From IMG/VR virus record IMGVR_UViG_3300035698_031742, positions 1 through 27,252 of that record: 27,252 nucleotides of DNA. One strand, 5' to 3'. Positions within the stretch are counted from its first letter, which is position 1; each line of letters begins with the position of its first letter. Shown here piece after piece: positions 10,820 through 26,157 of the stretch. Source of the stretch: a virus. A program made the translations under genes and the position numbers. The notes below the pieces were generated by a model. That model was not told where the DNA came from and ran no database searches. It saw nothing but the letters and a program-made list of their open reading frames with translations.

Positions 10820-11773
10820 TTATAATTTCATCCCCAAAAGGGCCATCAATTCCTGTCTTGCCGCAACGCCCTCTTGACTCTTTTCCAAAAACTTACCTTT
10901 AAGAGATGATGTAACCATCACGGAATTTTGTTTTTCCACTCCCCTTGAAGACATACAAAGATGTTTTGCTTCAATAATACAAGCAGCCCCATAAGCGCCG
11001 GCAATCTTCATAATAACTTCCGTCACCTGTTCACCAATTCGTTCTTGTATTTGTAATCGTCTTGCAAAAATTTCAACAAGACGAGCCAATTTTGAAACCC
11101 CAATAACTTTTCTACCTTCTTTAAATTCTGATGGAATATACGCCACATGTGCTTTCCCAATAAAAGGCAAAAGATGATGTTCACATGTTGAATACATTTC
11201 AATATCCCGACAAATAACCATTTGATCATATGTTTCTGCCTTAAATGTTTTTATAATATCCAATGGATCTTTTTTATATCCTGAAAAAAGATGATCCCAT
11301 GATTTTAAAACCCTTGCAGGGGTTTCAATCAATCCCTCCCGAGTAGAATCTTCTCCAATATATTCAAAAAATCGGGTTATAATATCACCGGCAGAGGTAA
11401 CTAAATTACCTTCCCACCAATAAACAATCCATTTCCCAAAAGTACTTTTAAGCCCAATAGTAGGAGATCCATTTTTACATTTTTTTTGAGGGGATTCATG
11501 AATACAAGCAAAATCATTATTTGGATATCTCGCCCGAGTTTTTCCTGAATCAACAATATCATCAATTATGATAACATCATCGGGTATGTCATTACTTCTT
11601 AACCAACGTGATTCAATAGGAATCCCAAGAAGCCGGGATAATTCCAATGCAACAGGAACCCCGCCTCTTGGGATTGGACAAATTTCTTTATAAAATCCCT
11701 TTCCAATACGTTCTGCCAACCTCTTCACATCTTCATAAAATTCTTTTTCGCAATAATAATATTTTTCCGGCAT
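10820..11773 (-). CDS. folE: Phosphoribosyltransferase-FolE (GTP cyclohydrolase I) fusion
   Basis: A 317-aa two-domain protein. Residues 1-125 form a type I phosphoribosyltransferase: [15 protein letters not shown] (33-47) and the PRPP-binding loop [15 protein letters not shown] (65-79). Residues 131-317 are GTP cyclohydrolase IA, which turns GTP into dihydroneopterin triphosphate, the first step to preQ0. Zinc ligands are C197 and H200 ([10 protein letters not shown]) and C273 (HLCMSSRGV); [19 protein letters not shown] is the family signature helix. FolE alone is about 190-220 aa, so the N-terminal domain is an added module, perhaps for salvage of a base or guanine supply (inference). GGGAGG precedes the ATG. 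It is followed by dpdA with a two-base gap. Confidence 0.93.
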
Positions 11774-11791
11774 TTTAACCTCCCAATCTTG

Positions 11792-12466
11792 TTAAAATAA
11801 AGCGGGATAGATTAAAGGATCTTTAATCTTTGCTTCTTGAAAACCCTTTGCGCGCAATTTGCAAGCGTCACACTCACCACAAGGGGGTCTTTGACCATTG
11901 TAACAAGTATGGGTTTGTTCATACCAATACAAAACCCCTAATTCGCTCATTGTCAAAACCGTTTCCGCTTTAGTTTTCCACATTAAAGGGGTTTTAATAA
12001 TGATATCCACTCCCAAACATAAGCTTAATGCCACCTGAACGGCTTTTACCGAGTTATCTCTACAATCGGGATACCCTGAATAATCCGTTTCACAAACTCC
12101 AGTATATAACGTTTTAATCCCATATAAAGCGGCAAATGATGCAGCAATTCCTAAAAATAAATAATTACGACCCGGAACAAAAGTAGCAGGTAAACTTTCG
12201 AACATAGGGTGTTTCACCGGTATCTTTTTATCTGTAAATAATGCAGACCCGCCAACTTCTTTTAAGCTTGAAATGGGAATACAAATATGTTTTGCCCCTG
12301 ATAAATTTGCTAATTTTTCAGCACAATCCAATTCAATTTTGTGTCGTTGCCCATAATCAAAAGACATGACATAAATAGGATCACATTTATCTAAATATTT
12401 CGCAATTGCCAAACAGGTAGCTGAATCCTGACCCCCTGATAACAAAATAAGGGCAGATTTTGACAT
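11792..12466 (-). CDS. queC: 7-cyano-7-deazaguanine (preQ0) synthase QueC
   Basis: Predicted ATP-dependent enzyme converting 7-carboxy-7-deazaguanine and ammonia to preQ0. The PP-loop SGGQDS is at residues 9-14, DYGQRHKIE (about 38-46) follows, then FVPGRN and the C-terminal zinc-binding cysteines in CYNGQRPPCGECDACK (about 188-203). At 224 aa it is full length for the family. AAGGAG is nine bases before the ATG. It is not fused to an amidotransferase domain, unlike the Gat-QueC proteins some phages use to make archaeosine-type bases. It follows the basic protein gene after a tetraloop hairpin and precedes folE. Confidence 0.96.
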   Translation of the reverse strand: MSKSALILLSGGQDSATCLAIAKYLDKCDPIYVMSFDYGQRHKIELDCAEKLANLSGAKHICIPISSLKEVGGSALFTDKKIPVKHPMFESLPATFVPGRNYLFLGIAASFAALYGIKTLYTGVCETDYSGYPDCRDNSVKAVQVALSLCLGVDIIIKTPLMWKTKAETVLTMSELGVLYWYEQTHTCYNGQRPPCGECDACKLRAKGFQEAKIKDPLIYPALF

Positions 12467-22299: not shown

Positions 22300-23466
22300 T
22301 TAAATCAAATTCGTCGCCTGTTCCTGAATTTGTTTTACAAGCATTGGAGTCATAATTCTCAAAAGCGTCCTTTTGTTTTTCGTGGCCGCTACATCTTCCA
22401 AGGATTTAATACCCCGCTCAAACATTTTTTTGGCTCGGGCACCACCAATACCCTTTAATTGACAAAGCGGTACAACTTCCTCGGAAACAGCATACTTGAT
22501 ACGAATGGGTAAAGATTTCCAAAAATCATCTTTTCCCCATTTTTCATAAAAACCATCAACCATTGAAAAAGATTGACAGATTCGATTAACATCAAAAATT
22601 AGATTTCGAGAAATAGCCTTGACCGTGCCATTTCCAGCTTCCCCATCCGTTAAGCAATTATACGCTGCCAATATAGCAGGAATAGAATTTTGGTTTTTAA
22701 CCTGGCATCCTCTGTTTTTCAAATGCCATAGAAAATCATCACATTCAGGCTGAAGATCCCTTGTGATGTATCCGGGATCATTTGAAGGAATGTCTCCAAT
22801 AGCCCATGCCAAGGTGATGTCATCCAAATCGATGAAAGATTCCTGCTTTTCTCCTTGAACTGGCCGTCCAAATAATTGACAAAAATTCTTATGCCATCCG
22901 GCCACATCATAGGGATTGTAATACATCCAAGCGGAAACCCTTCCAAGTCCTGTTACTCTTGGATGACCTTCGTAAATTTCTGTCATTTCCATTTCCGCCA
23001 AATCTTCCATCAAGGCAGAGGCATCCACTTTGTCAAATTTCATATCTTGACGAGATGCCAATGAACGAGAATACCAAGCAAAAAGATCCTTGTCTCCTTT
23101 GATTGCTTTGGTTTCAATTTCTGCCAGGACATGAAAAGCCAAGATTCCATGAGAATTTAAAACGGACGTAACAGGCCGTGGATTGGCAAAAGTGTATTGC
23201 CAGGCATTGGAACTTCCTTCCGGGATAACCATGAAGACATGGCCTTCATCATCAATCCCGTAACGGCCTGCCCGGCCTGCCATCTGAATGATATCCAATT
23301 CGTCAACTTCGGACATTCCGCGATGAACCCCAACAATTACAACATTTCTTGCCGGGAGGTTGCAATTATGGGTTAAAATCCCGTTTGCAAAAAAATTGTG
23401 ATTCTTTTCCGTTGTGATGTCAATCTGCTTGGTTGGTGGTTTCTTTTTGATTGATTTAATTCTCAT
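22300..23466 (-). CDS. C-intein plus C-terminal half of Ski2/Hel308-like helicase
   Basis: A 388-aa protein. Residues 1-34 are the C-intein: TKQIDITTEKNHNFFANG is intein block F and ILTHN the block G end (penultimate His, last Asn). Cys35 is the +1 nucleophile. The rest is the helicase C-half: CNLPARNVVIVG finishes motif V, QMAGRAGRYG (61-70) is motif VI, then a winged-helix and ratchet region ending in a hairpin-helix (CQLKGIGGARAKKMF, about 342-356). After trans-splicing, the helicase would be 536 + 354 = 890 aa. The ATG at 23466 has AAAGGAGG nine bases ahead, inside the endonuclease gene, and overlaps that gene's end by 11 bases, so it is expressed as its own protein. Confidence 0.93.
   Translation of the reverse strand: MRIKSIKKKPPTKQIDITTEKNHNFFANGILTHNCNLPARNVVIVGVHRGMSEVDELDIIQMAGRAGRYGIDDEGHVFMVIPEGSSNAWQYTFANPRPVTSVLNSHGILAFHVLAEIETKAIKGDKDLFAWYSRSLASRQDMKFDKVDASALMEDLAEMEMTEIYEGHPRVTGLGRVSAWMYYNPYDVAGWHKNFCQLFGRPVQGEKQESFIDLDDITLAWAIGDIPSNDPGYITRDLQPECDDFLWHLKNRGCQVKNQNSIPAILAAYNCLTDGEAGNGTVKAISRNLIFDVNRICQSFSMVDGFYEKWGKDDFWKSLPIRIKYAVSEEVVPLCQLKGIGGARAKKMFERGIKSLEDVAATKNKRTLLRIMTPMLVKQIQEQATNLI
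23365..23466 (-). other. C-intein (split intein, 34 residues)
   Basis: Codons 1-34 of the C-terminal helicase gene. KNHNFFANG matches the block F consensus, THN followed by Cys matches block G. Block F has Asp at position 4 (QID), as in ordinary inteins, where class 3 inteins have Cys. The junction is N34|C35 with C35 coded at 23362-23364. Confidence 0.92.
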
Positions 23467-24178
23467 TGGACAAAACCTCCTTTGTTTTAATTAAAATTTC
23501 TTGTGCAACGATTTGAGGGTTTTTTTGAGCATTAAAACGAAATCTATAAACTTTCCATCCCCGATTTCTTAAAAATCTATCTTTTTTAATATCCCTAATT
23601 CTTGTTTTATCATGCAATTTAGAATCAACTTCAATAGCAATCATCTTATCTAATAAAGCAAAATCTATCATATAAGACCCTTTATTAAATGGAACTTCAT
23701 AATCAAAAATAAATCCAAAAGGTAACAATACTTTTATTATTGCCTTTTCAAATTGACTTGGTTCATTATGCCTTCCAAGATGTTTAAATGGAGAGGTTTT
23801 TCTTCCTTCTTTATAAGCTTCTTTTAACCATTTTGAACTAGCTTGACCAATCCTTTCTTTTGCTTCTTTTGTATGAGTCTTTCCATAAAAATGATTTTCT
23901 TTTCCAGATTGATTATTATTTTTTTTATTTAAAGGAAAATTTTTTCTACAATAAATTTTTTTCATAGATTCGCTAATTTGTTTTTTTGTTTCTTCTGATT
24001 GGTGAGATCTATTTTTTGCCTTTTGTTTTAATTTTTCTTTTGTCGCCTGACAAGTAAAATTCGCATAAGGAAATTTATTCTTATATTCCGCCGCGGTCAT
24101 TCCATGTGAAAATAAATGCCCAGTTCCTATTTGTTTAAATTTTTTTCCACAGATTTGACAAATAATAAAATCTTTCAT
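23456..24178 (-). CDS. Free-standing homing endonuclease between the intein halves
   Basis: A 240-aa protein. Residues 7-25 form a C2H2-type zinc finger (CQIC ... HLFSH) followed by GMTAAEYKNKFP, a MucR-like pattern. Two NUMOD3-like DNA-binding segments follow (about 56-74 and 91-113, SGKENHFYGKTH). The C-terminal domain (about 140-230) is of the Vsr/DUF559 PD-(D/E)xK type: E144, D172, AIEVDSKLHD (181-190) and a RDIKKDRFLRNRGWKVYRFR tail. Free-standing nucleases with this fold are known between split-intein halves in 'fractured' phage-like genes. It would cut intein-free alleles and drive its own spread. AAGGAGGTAAAA precedes the ATG, adjacent to an 18-bp stem. Cleavage itself is inferred. 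Confidence 0.9.
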   Translation of the reverse strand: MKDFIICQICGKKFKQIGTGHLFSHGMTAAEYKNKFPYANFTCQATKEKLKQKAKNRSHQSEETKKQISESMKKIYCRKNFPLNKKNNNQSGKENHFYGKTHTKEAKERIGQASSKWLKEAYKEGRKTSPFKHLGRHNEPSQFEKAIIKVLLPFGFIFDYEVPFNKGSYMIDFALLDKMIAIEVDSKLHDKTRIRDIKKDRFLRNRGWKVYRFRFNAQKNPQIVAQEILIKTKEVLSNEN

Positions 24179-24188
24179 TTTTACCTCC

Positions 24189-24238
24189 TTGACTTGGGAT
24201 TATATTTTCAACTATCTTATAATATAACCCCAAGTCAA
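24189..24238 (-). promoter_or_regulatory. 18-bp stem-loop masking the endonuclease ribosome site
   Basis: In the minus-strand RNA, TTGACTTGGGGTTATATT pairs with AATATAATCCCAAGTCAA over 18 positions (17 Watson-Crick, one G.U) around a 14-base loop. The 3' arm ends exactly where GGAGG of the endonuclease ribosome site begins. It could block initiation on transcripts that read through from the N-terminal gene; hairpins doing this are known at several T-even phage endonuclease genes. Confidence 0.7.
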
Positions 24239-24258
24239 AGTCAAGCCCCAAGTCAAAG
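24228..24258. repeat. 13-bp direct repeat at the N-intein stop
   Basis: CCCCAAGTCAAAG occurs at 24228-24240 and 24246-24258. The second copy contains the TGA stop of the N-intein gene, the first forms part of the stem. A duplication of the stem arm into the intein end could have made the stop and thereby split the intein. Confidence 0.6.
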
Positions 24259-24549
24259 TATAACCAAATCGTCCATTTCTGTTAAATTGGCCGCTTCTTT
24301 TGTAATAAAACTTCCATCATCCTGACGAACATAAAAAGGATGTTTCTTATCAACCCGAATTGTCTGCCCATTTTCCAACTCAATTTCAAGGTCATATTCA
24401 GGTTCATATTCAAGAGCATTCAAAACAACATCTTGTTCAAATTTGCCAGTTTTTTCATTATAGGAACAAATTGCATTCCCGGCTTTGACATCTTTTGCAA
24501 GTTTTTTGGTTCCATTTGCCATCAAAATTTCTGTTTCCTCATTGACGGC
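24253..24549 (-). other. N-intein (split intein, 98 residues, Ala at position 1)
   Basis: Begins at Ala537 (codon at 24547-24549) of the N-terminal gene. AVNEETEILMANGTKKL is intein block A with Ala in place of the usual Cys or Ser at position 1; the sixth residue Thr and eighth Ile align with known inteins. Block B reads GQTIRVDKKHPFYV, with the conserved His but Asp in place of the usual Thr three residues before it. It ends FITKEAANLTEMDDLVIL. Confidence 0.9.
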
Positions 24550-26157
24550 GCCCCATGCCAAAGTTGATGTTGAAACAATAACTCTTAATCCCTTACCTTT
24601 GTCTTGAAAAGATTTTTCAATGGACAATCTTTCGTCCATTTTTAAATCTGCACTGTGAAAGCTGGCGTTCACGTCATGATTTTTCAAACGGCGAACCATA
24701 TCTCTGCCAGTTGCTTTATCATGGACAAAAACCAGAAATTTTTCATCAGGTTTTGATTTCACAATGTCCACAGCCATCCTTCTTTTGATAACTTGAGTTG
24801 CGTGATAATCCTGACCACCCCATGATGAACGAGCAGGGGTGTATTCGTGATAATGCATCTGAAGAACAACCGGACGCCAATTACAATAAATAACATCTGT
24901 ATCCTTCTTGTTAAGGGTTGTTAACCAATGGCCCAATTCATCAACATTAGGCATGGTTGCAGAAAGAAAAAGAACCCGGGCATTGAAATTCAAACGGGTA
25001 AATCGCATAATTCCCGTCTCAACTGCATGACCTCGATTGGTGGAAAGAATGTGACTTTCATCCACAATAACCAAGCCAACTTGCCCCATCCAGTAATTCT
25101 TTTCGGCCTTGTACTTCCGAGTCCGTGAATCCATCATCTCCGAAGTCATTACAATGATTCTGCTGCCGGTTATCTGCTTTTTCATGGCTTCTGAAAGAAC
25201 ATAATCGCCGGTCATGATTGTGATTTTTTCGTTTGGAAATCGTTTTTGCCAATCCTCGTACTTTTCCTGGGTCAAGGATTTCAAAGGGGATAAATAAATG
25301 ATCCTTTGATCGTTTGCCAAAACAAAATCCATCAAAAGTTCAGCACAAATGGTTTTGCCCGCGGAAGTATTAGCCCCGATGATCATATTACGGTCATGAT
25401 GCCGCAAAGGATAAACCAGGGATTGAACCGGATTGAAATTTTCAAAAGGATATTTCCAATCCTGATAATCTGTTGTCGGAATCAAAACGACATTATTGCC
25501 GTCCACAGGTTTTAATTGGCTTTTAATTCCAGCCAATTCTTTGTCTCTCTGAACAATGGCCTCGTTGATAAGTTGATCTGTTTCTTTATCCATGTCTGAG
25601 GCCTCTTCCAATCCATCAAGATAATCCTGGACAAATTCTGGATTCCTGCTTTTGACATTGGCTTCCAAAGTGGGATAACCTTTTGGTGATGTTTCTCCCA
25701 GGACATAAGCCATTTGCCCATCTGATAAAATTCCCCTCTGATTGACTTGTTCCAAAAGGGATTGTGCAAATTTACTGCGTGAATTGGCGGAAAGAACAGC
25801 TTTTACGTAATTAAAATCTATAATCTGTTGTTTTCCGGCATCGGCCATGAATTCCTGAATCCGGGAATGAATCCTATCTTGGATTGTAGTGGCCCCATCA
25901 ACCCGTAGAATTTTCTTTCCCTTGCCCATGGGTCGGTCATTTGGAATGTCCCAAAAAACCACCCGTATGGCATCTTTGCCTTTTTCCCTGGTTATTTGTG
26001 TCCGTTTATCAACTGTGCTGTAAATACGGACATTGATTCCCGTGTTTTCTGTCGGGATATCATAAACAACTTCCAGGGCATCAGGGACATCAGCAATAAA
26101 AGCATCCCCGGGCAAAATTGCCTCAAATTCCTGCTTTGTCAATTTTACAAAACCCAT
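24253..26157 (-). CDS. N-terminal half of Ski2/Hel308-like helicase plus N-intein
   Basis: A 634-aa protein. Residues 1-105 carry a small domain (VRIYSTVDKRTQITREKGKD, RPMGKGKKILRVDG) of a type also seen alone in phages, and 115-185 a helical linker. The SF2 core has GANTSAGKT (261-269, Walker A), VDESH (365-369), SATMP (399-403) and motif V TSTLAWG (530-536). It stops exactly there: residues 537-634 are the N-intein, so helicase motif VI is missing and is supplied by the gene at 22300-23466. AAGGAGG precedes the ATG at 26157. The complete helicase requires trans-splicing. Ski2-type helicases unwind branched DNA or RNA and are unusual in phages. Confidence 0.94.
   Translation of the reverse strand: MGFVKLTKQEFEAILPGDAFIADVPDALEVVYDIPTENTGINVRIYSTVDKRTQITREKGKDAIRVVFWDIPNDRPMGKGKKILRVDGATTIQDRIHSRIQEFMADAGKQQIIDFNYVKAVLSANSRSKFAQSLLEQVNQRGILSDGQMAYVLGETSPKGYPTLEANVKSRNPEFVQDYLDGLEEASDMDKETDQLINEAIVQRDKELAGIKSQLKPVDGNNVVLIPTTDYQDWKYPFENFNPVQSLVYPLRHHDRNMIIGANTSAGKTICAELLMDFVLANDQRIIYLSPLKSLTQEKYEDWQKRFPNEKITIMTGDYVLSEAMKKQITGSRIIVMTSEMMDSRTRKYKAEKNYWMGQVGLVIVDESHILSTNRGHAVETGIMRFTRLNFNARVLFLSATMPNVDELGHWLTTLNKKDTDVIYCNWRPVVLQMHYHEYTPARSSWGGQDYHATQVIKRRMAVDIVKSKPDEKFLVFVHDKATGRDMVRRLKNHDVNASFHSADLKMDERLSIEKSFQDKGKGLRVIVSTSTLAWGAVNEETEILMANGTKKLAKDVKAGNAICSYNEKTGKFEQDVVLNALEYEPEYDLEIELENGQTIRVDKKHPFYVRQDDGSFITKEAANLTEMDDLVIL

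What the first reader, a model, noticed from the sequence alone, without database searches (positions are those of the whole stretch)
22300..26157. Fractured Ski2-like helicase: split intein with an endonuclease gene between its halves
Seen: the upstream gene stops being helicase exactly at motif V (TSTLAWG) and ends in intein blocks A and B; the downstream gene starts with intein blocks F and G, then Cys and the helicase from NLPAR with motif VI. A nuclease gene lies between, with its own ribosome site. Known: split inteins flanking Vsr-type free-standing endonucleases ('fractured genes') have been described from environmental phage-like sequences for gp41 helicase, NrdJ and IMPDH. Inference: the two proteins trans-splice to an 890-aa helicase. 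I do not recall this arrangement in a Ski2/Hel308-type helicase, so the host gene is probably new.
Basis: partly seen in the sequence, partly recalled or inferred. Interest (0 to 1): 0.92.

Follow-up and report, generated by a model that had tools for sequence, protein, structure and literature searches.

The report
Phage helicase split by an intein
A phage helicase gene is broken in two at a vital motif, with a DNA-cutting gene between the pieces and the two halves of a self-removing protein segment (a split intein) at the broken ends; that segment lacks its usual first reactive residue, so it would have to rejoin the helicase by an unusual route.

Summary
The anatomy is confirmed. The N-half (24253-26157, minus strand) is a Ski2/Hel308-like helicase up to motif V (TSTLAWG), then a 98-residue N-intein. 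The C-half (22300-23466) is a 34-residue C-intein, Cys+1, then NLPAR and the rest of the helicase. An EDxHD/Vsr-like endonuclease gene (23456-24178) lies between. Joined, the halves give 890 residues that align without a gap to uninterrupted phage helicases. A second virus (L137) has the same three-gene arrangement at the same site (parts 43-62% identical). Ten other phages carry cis inteins at exactly this site, and one (L073) has an endonuclease there with no intein. So this is a 'fractured gene', a known arrangement; isolated phages have it in UvsW and UvsX. The host family and site are new as far as I could find. If active it should splice like a class 2 intein; a 2020 paper says no split class 2 intein was known. 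Trans-splicing is inferred, not shown; a dead intein or a one-base assembly error at Ala1 remain possible.

The parts
24253..26157 (-). N-half gene, 634 aa: helicase N-extein plus N-intein
24550..26157 (-). helicase N-extein, 536 codons, ending at motif V (VSTSTLAWG, 24550-24576)
24256..24549 (-). N-intein, 98 codons (AVNEETEIL...LTEMDDLVIL), then stop
24547..24549 (-). Ala1 codon GCC of the intein; Ser1 (TCG) in L137, Cys1 in cis inteins at the same site
24325..24357 (-). intein block B segment RVDKKHPFYVR (Asp at B:7, His at B:10), conserved in L137 as RVDWKHPFYVR
24189..24238 (-). inverted repeat (18-nt arms) forming a hairpin just upstream of the endonuclease ribosome site AGGAGG at 24184-24189
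   Evidence: (z -5.4, 0 of 200 shuffles as stable)
23456..24178 (-). free-standing endonuclease gene, 240 aa: Ros/MucR-like zinc finger, NUMOD3, DUF559/EDxHD-like nuclease domain
22300..23466 (-). C-half gene, 388 aa: C-intein plus helicase C-extein; ribosome site AGGAGG at 23476-23481
23365..23466 (-). C-intein, 34 codons, ending ..NHNFFANGILTHN (blocks F and G)
23362..23364 (-). [quoted passage not shown]
22303..23364 (-). helicase C-extein from C-NLPAR, with motif VI QMAGRAGR at 23263-23286 and the C-terminal helix-hairpin-helix

Best explanation
A fractured gene. A split intein sits at motif V of a phage Ski2/Hel308-like helicase, and a homing endonuclease gene occupies the gap where a cis intein would carry its endonuclease domain. 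The two translated halves associate through the intein fragments and trans-splice to an 890-residue helicase (TSTLAWG-CNLPAR). Because residue 1 is Ala, block F has Asp and no Cys, and +1 is Cys, the predicted route is class 2-like: Cys+1 attacks the Gly-Ala bond directly, then Asn34 of the C-intein cyclises. The endonuclease probably cuts the uninterrupted motif V sequence of co-infecting phages and so spreads itself and the intein. Shown: anatomy, homology, insertion site, recurrence in a second virus, empty sites. Inferred: trans-splicing, the class 2-like route, the cutting site. Rough odds: arrangement 0.95; trans-splicing given the arrangement 0.65; class 2-like route given splicing of the sequence as read 0.75.
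For: Helicase, intein and nuclease domains by HMM. Gap-free alignment of the joined product to intact relatives. Intact relative L002 models at pLDDT 87 and matches Hel308 and Brr2 at Z 34-36. Second fractured locus L137 at the identical site: N-intein 43%, C-intein 62%, endonuclease 44% identical, no stop or frameshift in what is held (its C-half runs off the contig end). Ten distinct phage loci with cis inteins ending exactly HN|CNLPAR or HN|CNFPAR, and a pair with and without the insert, L080 and L087, 83-84% DNA identity on both sides. All three genes have good ribosome sites. Block B His, block F Asp, THN and Cys+1 are kept. Ala1 does not in itself bar a split intein: AceL NrdHF has Ala1, lies in a fractured gene and splices (PMC7891396).
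Against: No direct splicing data. Ala1 removes the class 1 nucleophile. Known class 2 inteins (KlbA; PMC4031507) have Thr at B:7 and Ser at G:6, whereas this one has Asp and His. AceL NrdHF works through a block-F Cys that is absent here. L073 shows that a related phage carries the helicase broken at the same motif with no intein, so splicing may not be essential.
Confidence: 0.6

Rival explanations
1. The intein is no longer active: Ala1 is a loss of the Ser1 nucleophile still present in L137. The halves stay separate and either work as a non-covalent two-chain helicase or the helicase is dispensable.
For: Ala1 against Ser1 in L137 and Cys1 in cis inteins at the site. L073 carries a helicase split at the same motif, lacking LPA, with no intein. 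HEG-split NrdA of phage Aeh1 works as two chains (PMC2988022).
Against: Reading frames, block B His, block F Asp, THN and Cys+1 are all intact; a loss would have to be recent, or the rest of the intein would be expected to decay.
Confidence: 0.22
2. Ala1 is an assembly or sequencing error for Ser (GCC against TCC, one base); the element is an ordinary class 1 split intein with Ser1 like L137.
For: The homologous split intein has Ser1; one base separates the codons GCC and TCC; the record is an IMG/VR virus record and probably a metagenomic assembly.
Against: No frameshift or stop in any of the three genes; no specific sign of error. Reads not available here.
Confidence: 0.1
3. The intein splices through another internal nucleophile, e.g. 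Cys28 of the N-intein, rather than by direct Cys+1 attack.
For: Cys28 is the only cysteine in the intein itself.
Against: Position 28 is Trp in L137; class 3 inteins use a block-F Cys, which is Asp here; the non-conserved N-intein Cys of AceL NrdHF proved irrelevant (PMC7891396).
Confidence: 0.04
4. The interruption is removed at RNA level (self-splicing intron) or is an assembly artefact joining unrelated genes.
For: None found.
Against: No Rfam match in the window or in L073, L020, L021, L137, L139; the C-half overlaps the endonuclease stop, so there is no room for intron structure on that side; each half has its own ribosome site; same order in L137.
Confidence: 0.02

Closest known systems
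Fractured genes with split inteins (Dassa et al. 2009; gp41, NrdJ, IMPDH, NrdA)
   Same: Host gene cut in two, N-intein and C-intein at the broken ends, free-standing homing endonuclease gene between; the joined intein matches NrdJ-1 and gp41-1 by sequence.
   Different: Different host family (Ski2/Hel308-like helicase, motif V); Ala1 with Cys+1. The 2009 paper itself was not held, so the host list is from memory and from papers that cite it.
UvsW of Salmonella phage vB_SenM-S16 (gp114, gp114.1, gp115)
   Same: SF2 helicase split by a split intein with an endonuclease-like gene between.
   Different: UvsW, not Ski2/Hel308-like; split at motif II (DE|CH); Cys1.
AceL NrdHF split intein (PMC7891396)
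   Same: Ala1, naturally split with a 98-residue N-part, fractured phage-like gene with an endonuclease between.
   Different: Class 3 with Cys in block F; Ser+1; GIY-YIG endonuclease; ribonucleotide reductase host. Here block F has Asp and no Cys.
Class 2 intein KlbA of Methanocaldococcus jannaschii (PMC4031507)
   Same: Ala1, His B:10, Asp F:4, Cys+1.
   Different: Contiguous, archaeal, Thr B:7 and Ser G:6; here split, viral, Asp B:7 and His G:6.
Cis inteins with LAGLIDADG domains at the same helicase site (L077, L079, L080, L081, L083, L085, L102, L103, L105, L107)
   Same: Same host family and exact insertion point, Cys+1 and NLPAR or NFPAR.
   Different: Contiguous; Cys1 in the nine where the N-end was read (L105 was read only at its C-end); endonuclease in frame.
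EDxHD homing endonuclease I-Bth0305I (3r3p)
   Same: Predicted nuclease domain matches 3r3p (probability 0.98-0.99, TM to target 0.61-0.62, rmsd 3.6-3.9).
   Different: E-value only 0.03-0.05 and a low-confidence model (pLDDT 57.8); the DNA-binding part here is a zinc finger with NUMOD3.

Membership tests
Fractured gene with split intein | host protein split into two ORFs with N-intein and C-intein at the broken ends | tested here: met
Fractured gene with split intein | free-standing endonuclease gene between the halves | tested here: met
Fractured gene with split intein | joined exteins equal an uninterrupted relative | tested here: met
   gap-free at the junction against L002, L003, L009
Fractured gene with split intein | trans-splicing activity | not testable with these tools
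   needs co-expression
Class 2 intein | no nucleophile at residue 1 | tested here: met
   Ala, codon GCC
Class 2 intein | Cys+1 | tested here: met
   codon TGC
Class 2 intein | His B:10 and Asp F:4 (required in KlbA, PMC4031507) | tested here: met
   VDKKHPFYV and QIDITTEKNHNFF; block positions assigned by eye
Class 2 intein | Thr B:7 and Ser G:6, as in KlbA orthologues | tested here: not met
   Asp and His here; so it is class 2-like, not a KlbA-type member
Class 2 intein | direct attack by Cys+1 | not testable with these tools
   needs mutants and mass spectrometry
Class 3 intein | Cys at F:4 | tested here: not met
   Asp at F:4, no Cys anywhere in the C-intein
Class 3 intein | Trp at B:12 | tested here: not met
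   Phe (GQTIRVDKKHPFYV)
Class 3 intein | Thr at G:5 | tested here: met
   THN, but also present in class 1 gp41-1 (PMC7664689)
Class 1 intein | Cys or Ser at residue 1 | tested here: not met
   Ala; Ser in the homologue L137
Ski2/Hel308-like SF2 helicase | two RecA domains, motif V continuing into NLPAR, motif VI and C-terminal HHH | tested here: met
   fold of the intact relative L002 against Hel308 and Brr2, Z 34-36
Hel308 proper (NCBIfam NF040935) | score over the curated cut-off of 1200 bits | tested here: not met
   95.8 and 65.7 bits for the two halves; a related but separate viral family
EDxHD (Vsr-like) homing endonuclease | catalytic domain fold of I-Bth0305I | tested here: inconclusive
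   3r3p at probability 0.98-0.99, but E 0.03-0.05 and pLDDT 57.8

The most novel reading that the evidence does not exclude
This is an active, naturally split intein that splices without a residue-1 or block-F nucleophile: a split class 2-like intein unrelated to KlbA. With its Ser1 homologue L137 it would be a natural class 1 and class 2 pair at one insertion site.
Probability: 0.35. Interest if true: 0.8.

Novelty: new variant of a known kind. Interest (0 to 1): 0.6.

Why it matters
One helicase site shows every state side by side: empty, cis intein with its own LAGLIDADG endonuclease, endonuclease alone, and split intein plus endonuclease. That makes models of how fractured genes arise (for instance collaborative homing between an intein and a separate endonuclease aimed at the same site) directly testable. 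If the Ala1 split intein works, it is a new starting point for protein-ligation tools and for asking how inteins lose the first nucleophile and still splice.

Tried and rejected
Pattern scan of 84,980 bacterial and archaeal genomes for HN|CNLPAR: 21 hits, none in a helicase frame, all chance. Scan for TLAWG|[A or S]V to find more Ala1 or Ser1 split cases: four chance hits only. First endonuclease scan found nothing; with an alignment it found L137 and four distant endonucleases in other contexts. Intron explanation: no Rfam match. Class 3: no Cys at F:4, rejected. Literature: no split class 2 intein and no Ski2/Hel308 split intein found in the held library; the Dassa 2009 paper is not held. 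I recall that the M. jannaschii Hel308 gene carries a cis intein but did not verify it or its position. Endonuclease structure: low confidence.

Full report
Observation. The window is an IMG/VR virus record of 27,252 bases. On the minus strand the order is N-half (24253-26157), endonuclease (23456-24178), C-half (22300-23466). The N-half follows helicase families up to motif V and then intein families; the C-half begins with an intein C-terminus and continues as helicase. Joining residues 1-536 of the N-half to residue 35 onward of the C-half gives 890 residues that align with no gap at the junction to uninterrupted phage proteins L002, L003 and L009; Cys+1 stands where they have Arg, Arg and Leu. 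The joined intein of 132 residues, profiled with its homologue, matches solved inteins over most of its length, among them NrdJ-1 and gp41-1.

Host protein. The intact relative L002 was modelled with 32 sequences (pLDDT 87.1) and matches Hel308 and Brr2 best, Z 34-36 over about 600-640 residues. The window protein scores far below the Hel308 family cut-off, so it is a viral Ski2/Hel308-like helicase, not Hel308 proper.

Comparison across viruses. A profile scan gave 80 loci. Thirteen of them are interrupted by mobile elements. At the window's site (WG|C) there are ten distinct loci with cis inteins (L077, L079, L080, L081, L083, L085, L102, L103, L105, L107), with Cys1 in the nine where the N-end was read. 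L080 and L087 are a related pair with and without the insert, 83-84% identical in DNA on both sides. L073 has a zinc-finger endonuclease gene at the same motif with no intein: the N-half ends TLAWGINI, its stop overlaps the endonuclease start (ATGA), and the C-half restarts at MRNVIIVG inside the endonuclease's 3' end. L137 is the second true split-intein case, with Ser1. In a tree the window groups with intein-free L015, L017, L018 and L024 (53-60% identity) and with L020 and L026, which carry an endonuclease gene after Walker A; it does not group with L137 (36%). So the element is sporadic, as expected of something that moves between phages or is often lost. I did not separate those two possibilities.

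The first residue. In register with the cis inteins and L137, window residue 1 is Ala (GCC) where they have Cys or Ser. Asp at B:7 is shared by both split inteins. Block F has Asp, the C-intein has no Cys, and +1 is Cys. This excludes class 1 and class 3 by signature and leaves a class 2-like route, as in KlbA (PMC4031507), or an inactive intein. A 2020 paper states that no split class 2 intein had been reported (PMC7891396); my search of the held library found none since, which is limited evidence. The same paper's AceL NrdHF shows that an Ala1 split intein in a fractured gene can be fast, but it uses a block-F Cys.

Endonuclease. Zinc finger of Ros/MucR type, NUMOD3 and a DUF559-type nuclease domain; best structural relatives 3hrl and the EDxHD enzyme I-Bth0305I, from a weak model. 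A hairpin with 18-nt arms ends at the first base of its ribosome site. A similar stable hairpin directly upstream of an unsequestered ribosome site is described for seg43(25) of Aeromonas phage 25 (PMC2988022), so regulated expression is a reasonable guess. The GC content of the endonuclease (27%) and N-intein (35%) is below that of the helicase parts (41-42%), which fits a mobile insert.

Known kind. Isolated phages already show the same architecture in other genes: UvsW of Salmonella phage S16 and UvsX of Vibrio phage VmeM-32. The window is therefore a new variant of fractured genes: new host family and site, unusual intein signature. What is shown is anatomy, homology and recurrence; splicing, its route and the endonuclease's target are inferred.

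Noticed in passing
L092:5716-6477 and L094:5725-6489: In motif II cis inteins of this helicase family a LAGLIDADG_2 endonuclease gene (E 2e-37 and 1e-32) is encoded out of frame inside the intein reading frame, which stays open over the same bases; 0 of 20,000 synonymous shuffles kept it open. Out-of-frame HNH genes are known in a phage methylase insert that is not an intein (PMC11855218).
   Followed up: partly
L073:2902-3834: Zinc-finger endonuclease gene splits the helicase at the same motif V with no intein; the joined halves would lack LPA.
   Followed up: partly
L020:1150-2100; L021 and L026:5860-6850: Helicase gene split by an endonuclease gene after Walker A, without an intein; no Rfam intron match in L020 and L021.
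   Followed up: partly
L139:3826-6133: UvsX/RecA gene split by a related zinc-finger endonuclease gene without an intein.
   Followed up: no
L052:3789-6869: Cis intein between GK and T of Walker A with Ala1, Trp in block B and Cys in block F, i.e. a class 3 signature.
   Followed up: no
window 10820-12466 minus: QueC and GTP cyclohydrolase I genes, as in phages with deazaguanine DNA modification (from memory).
   Followed up: no
PHROGs phrog_16259 (hit by window 24253-26157 minus): A family named 'DNA helicase' includes an N-intein tail, so it is probably built on fractured UvsW genes.
   Followed up: partly
L077:5001-6371: The translated stretch holds one stop codon that is not in the part read at the intein.
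   Followed up: no
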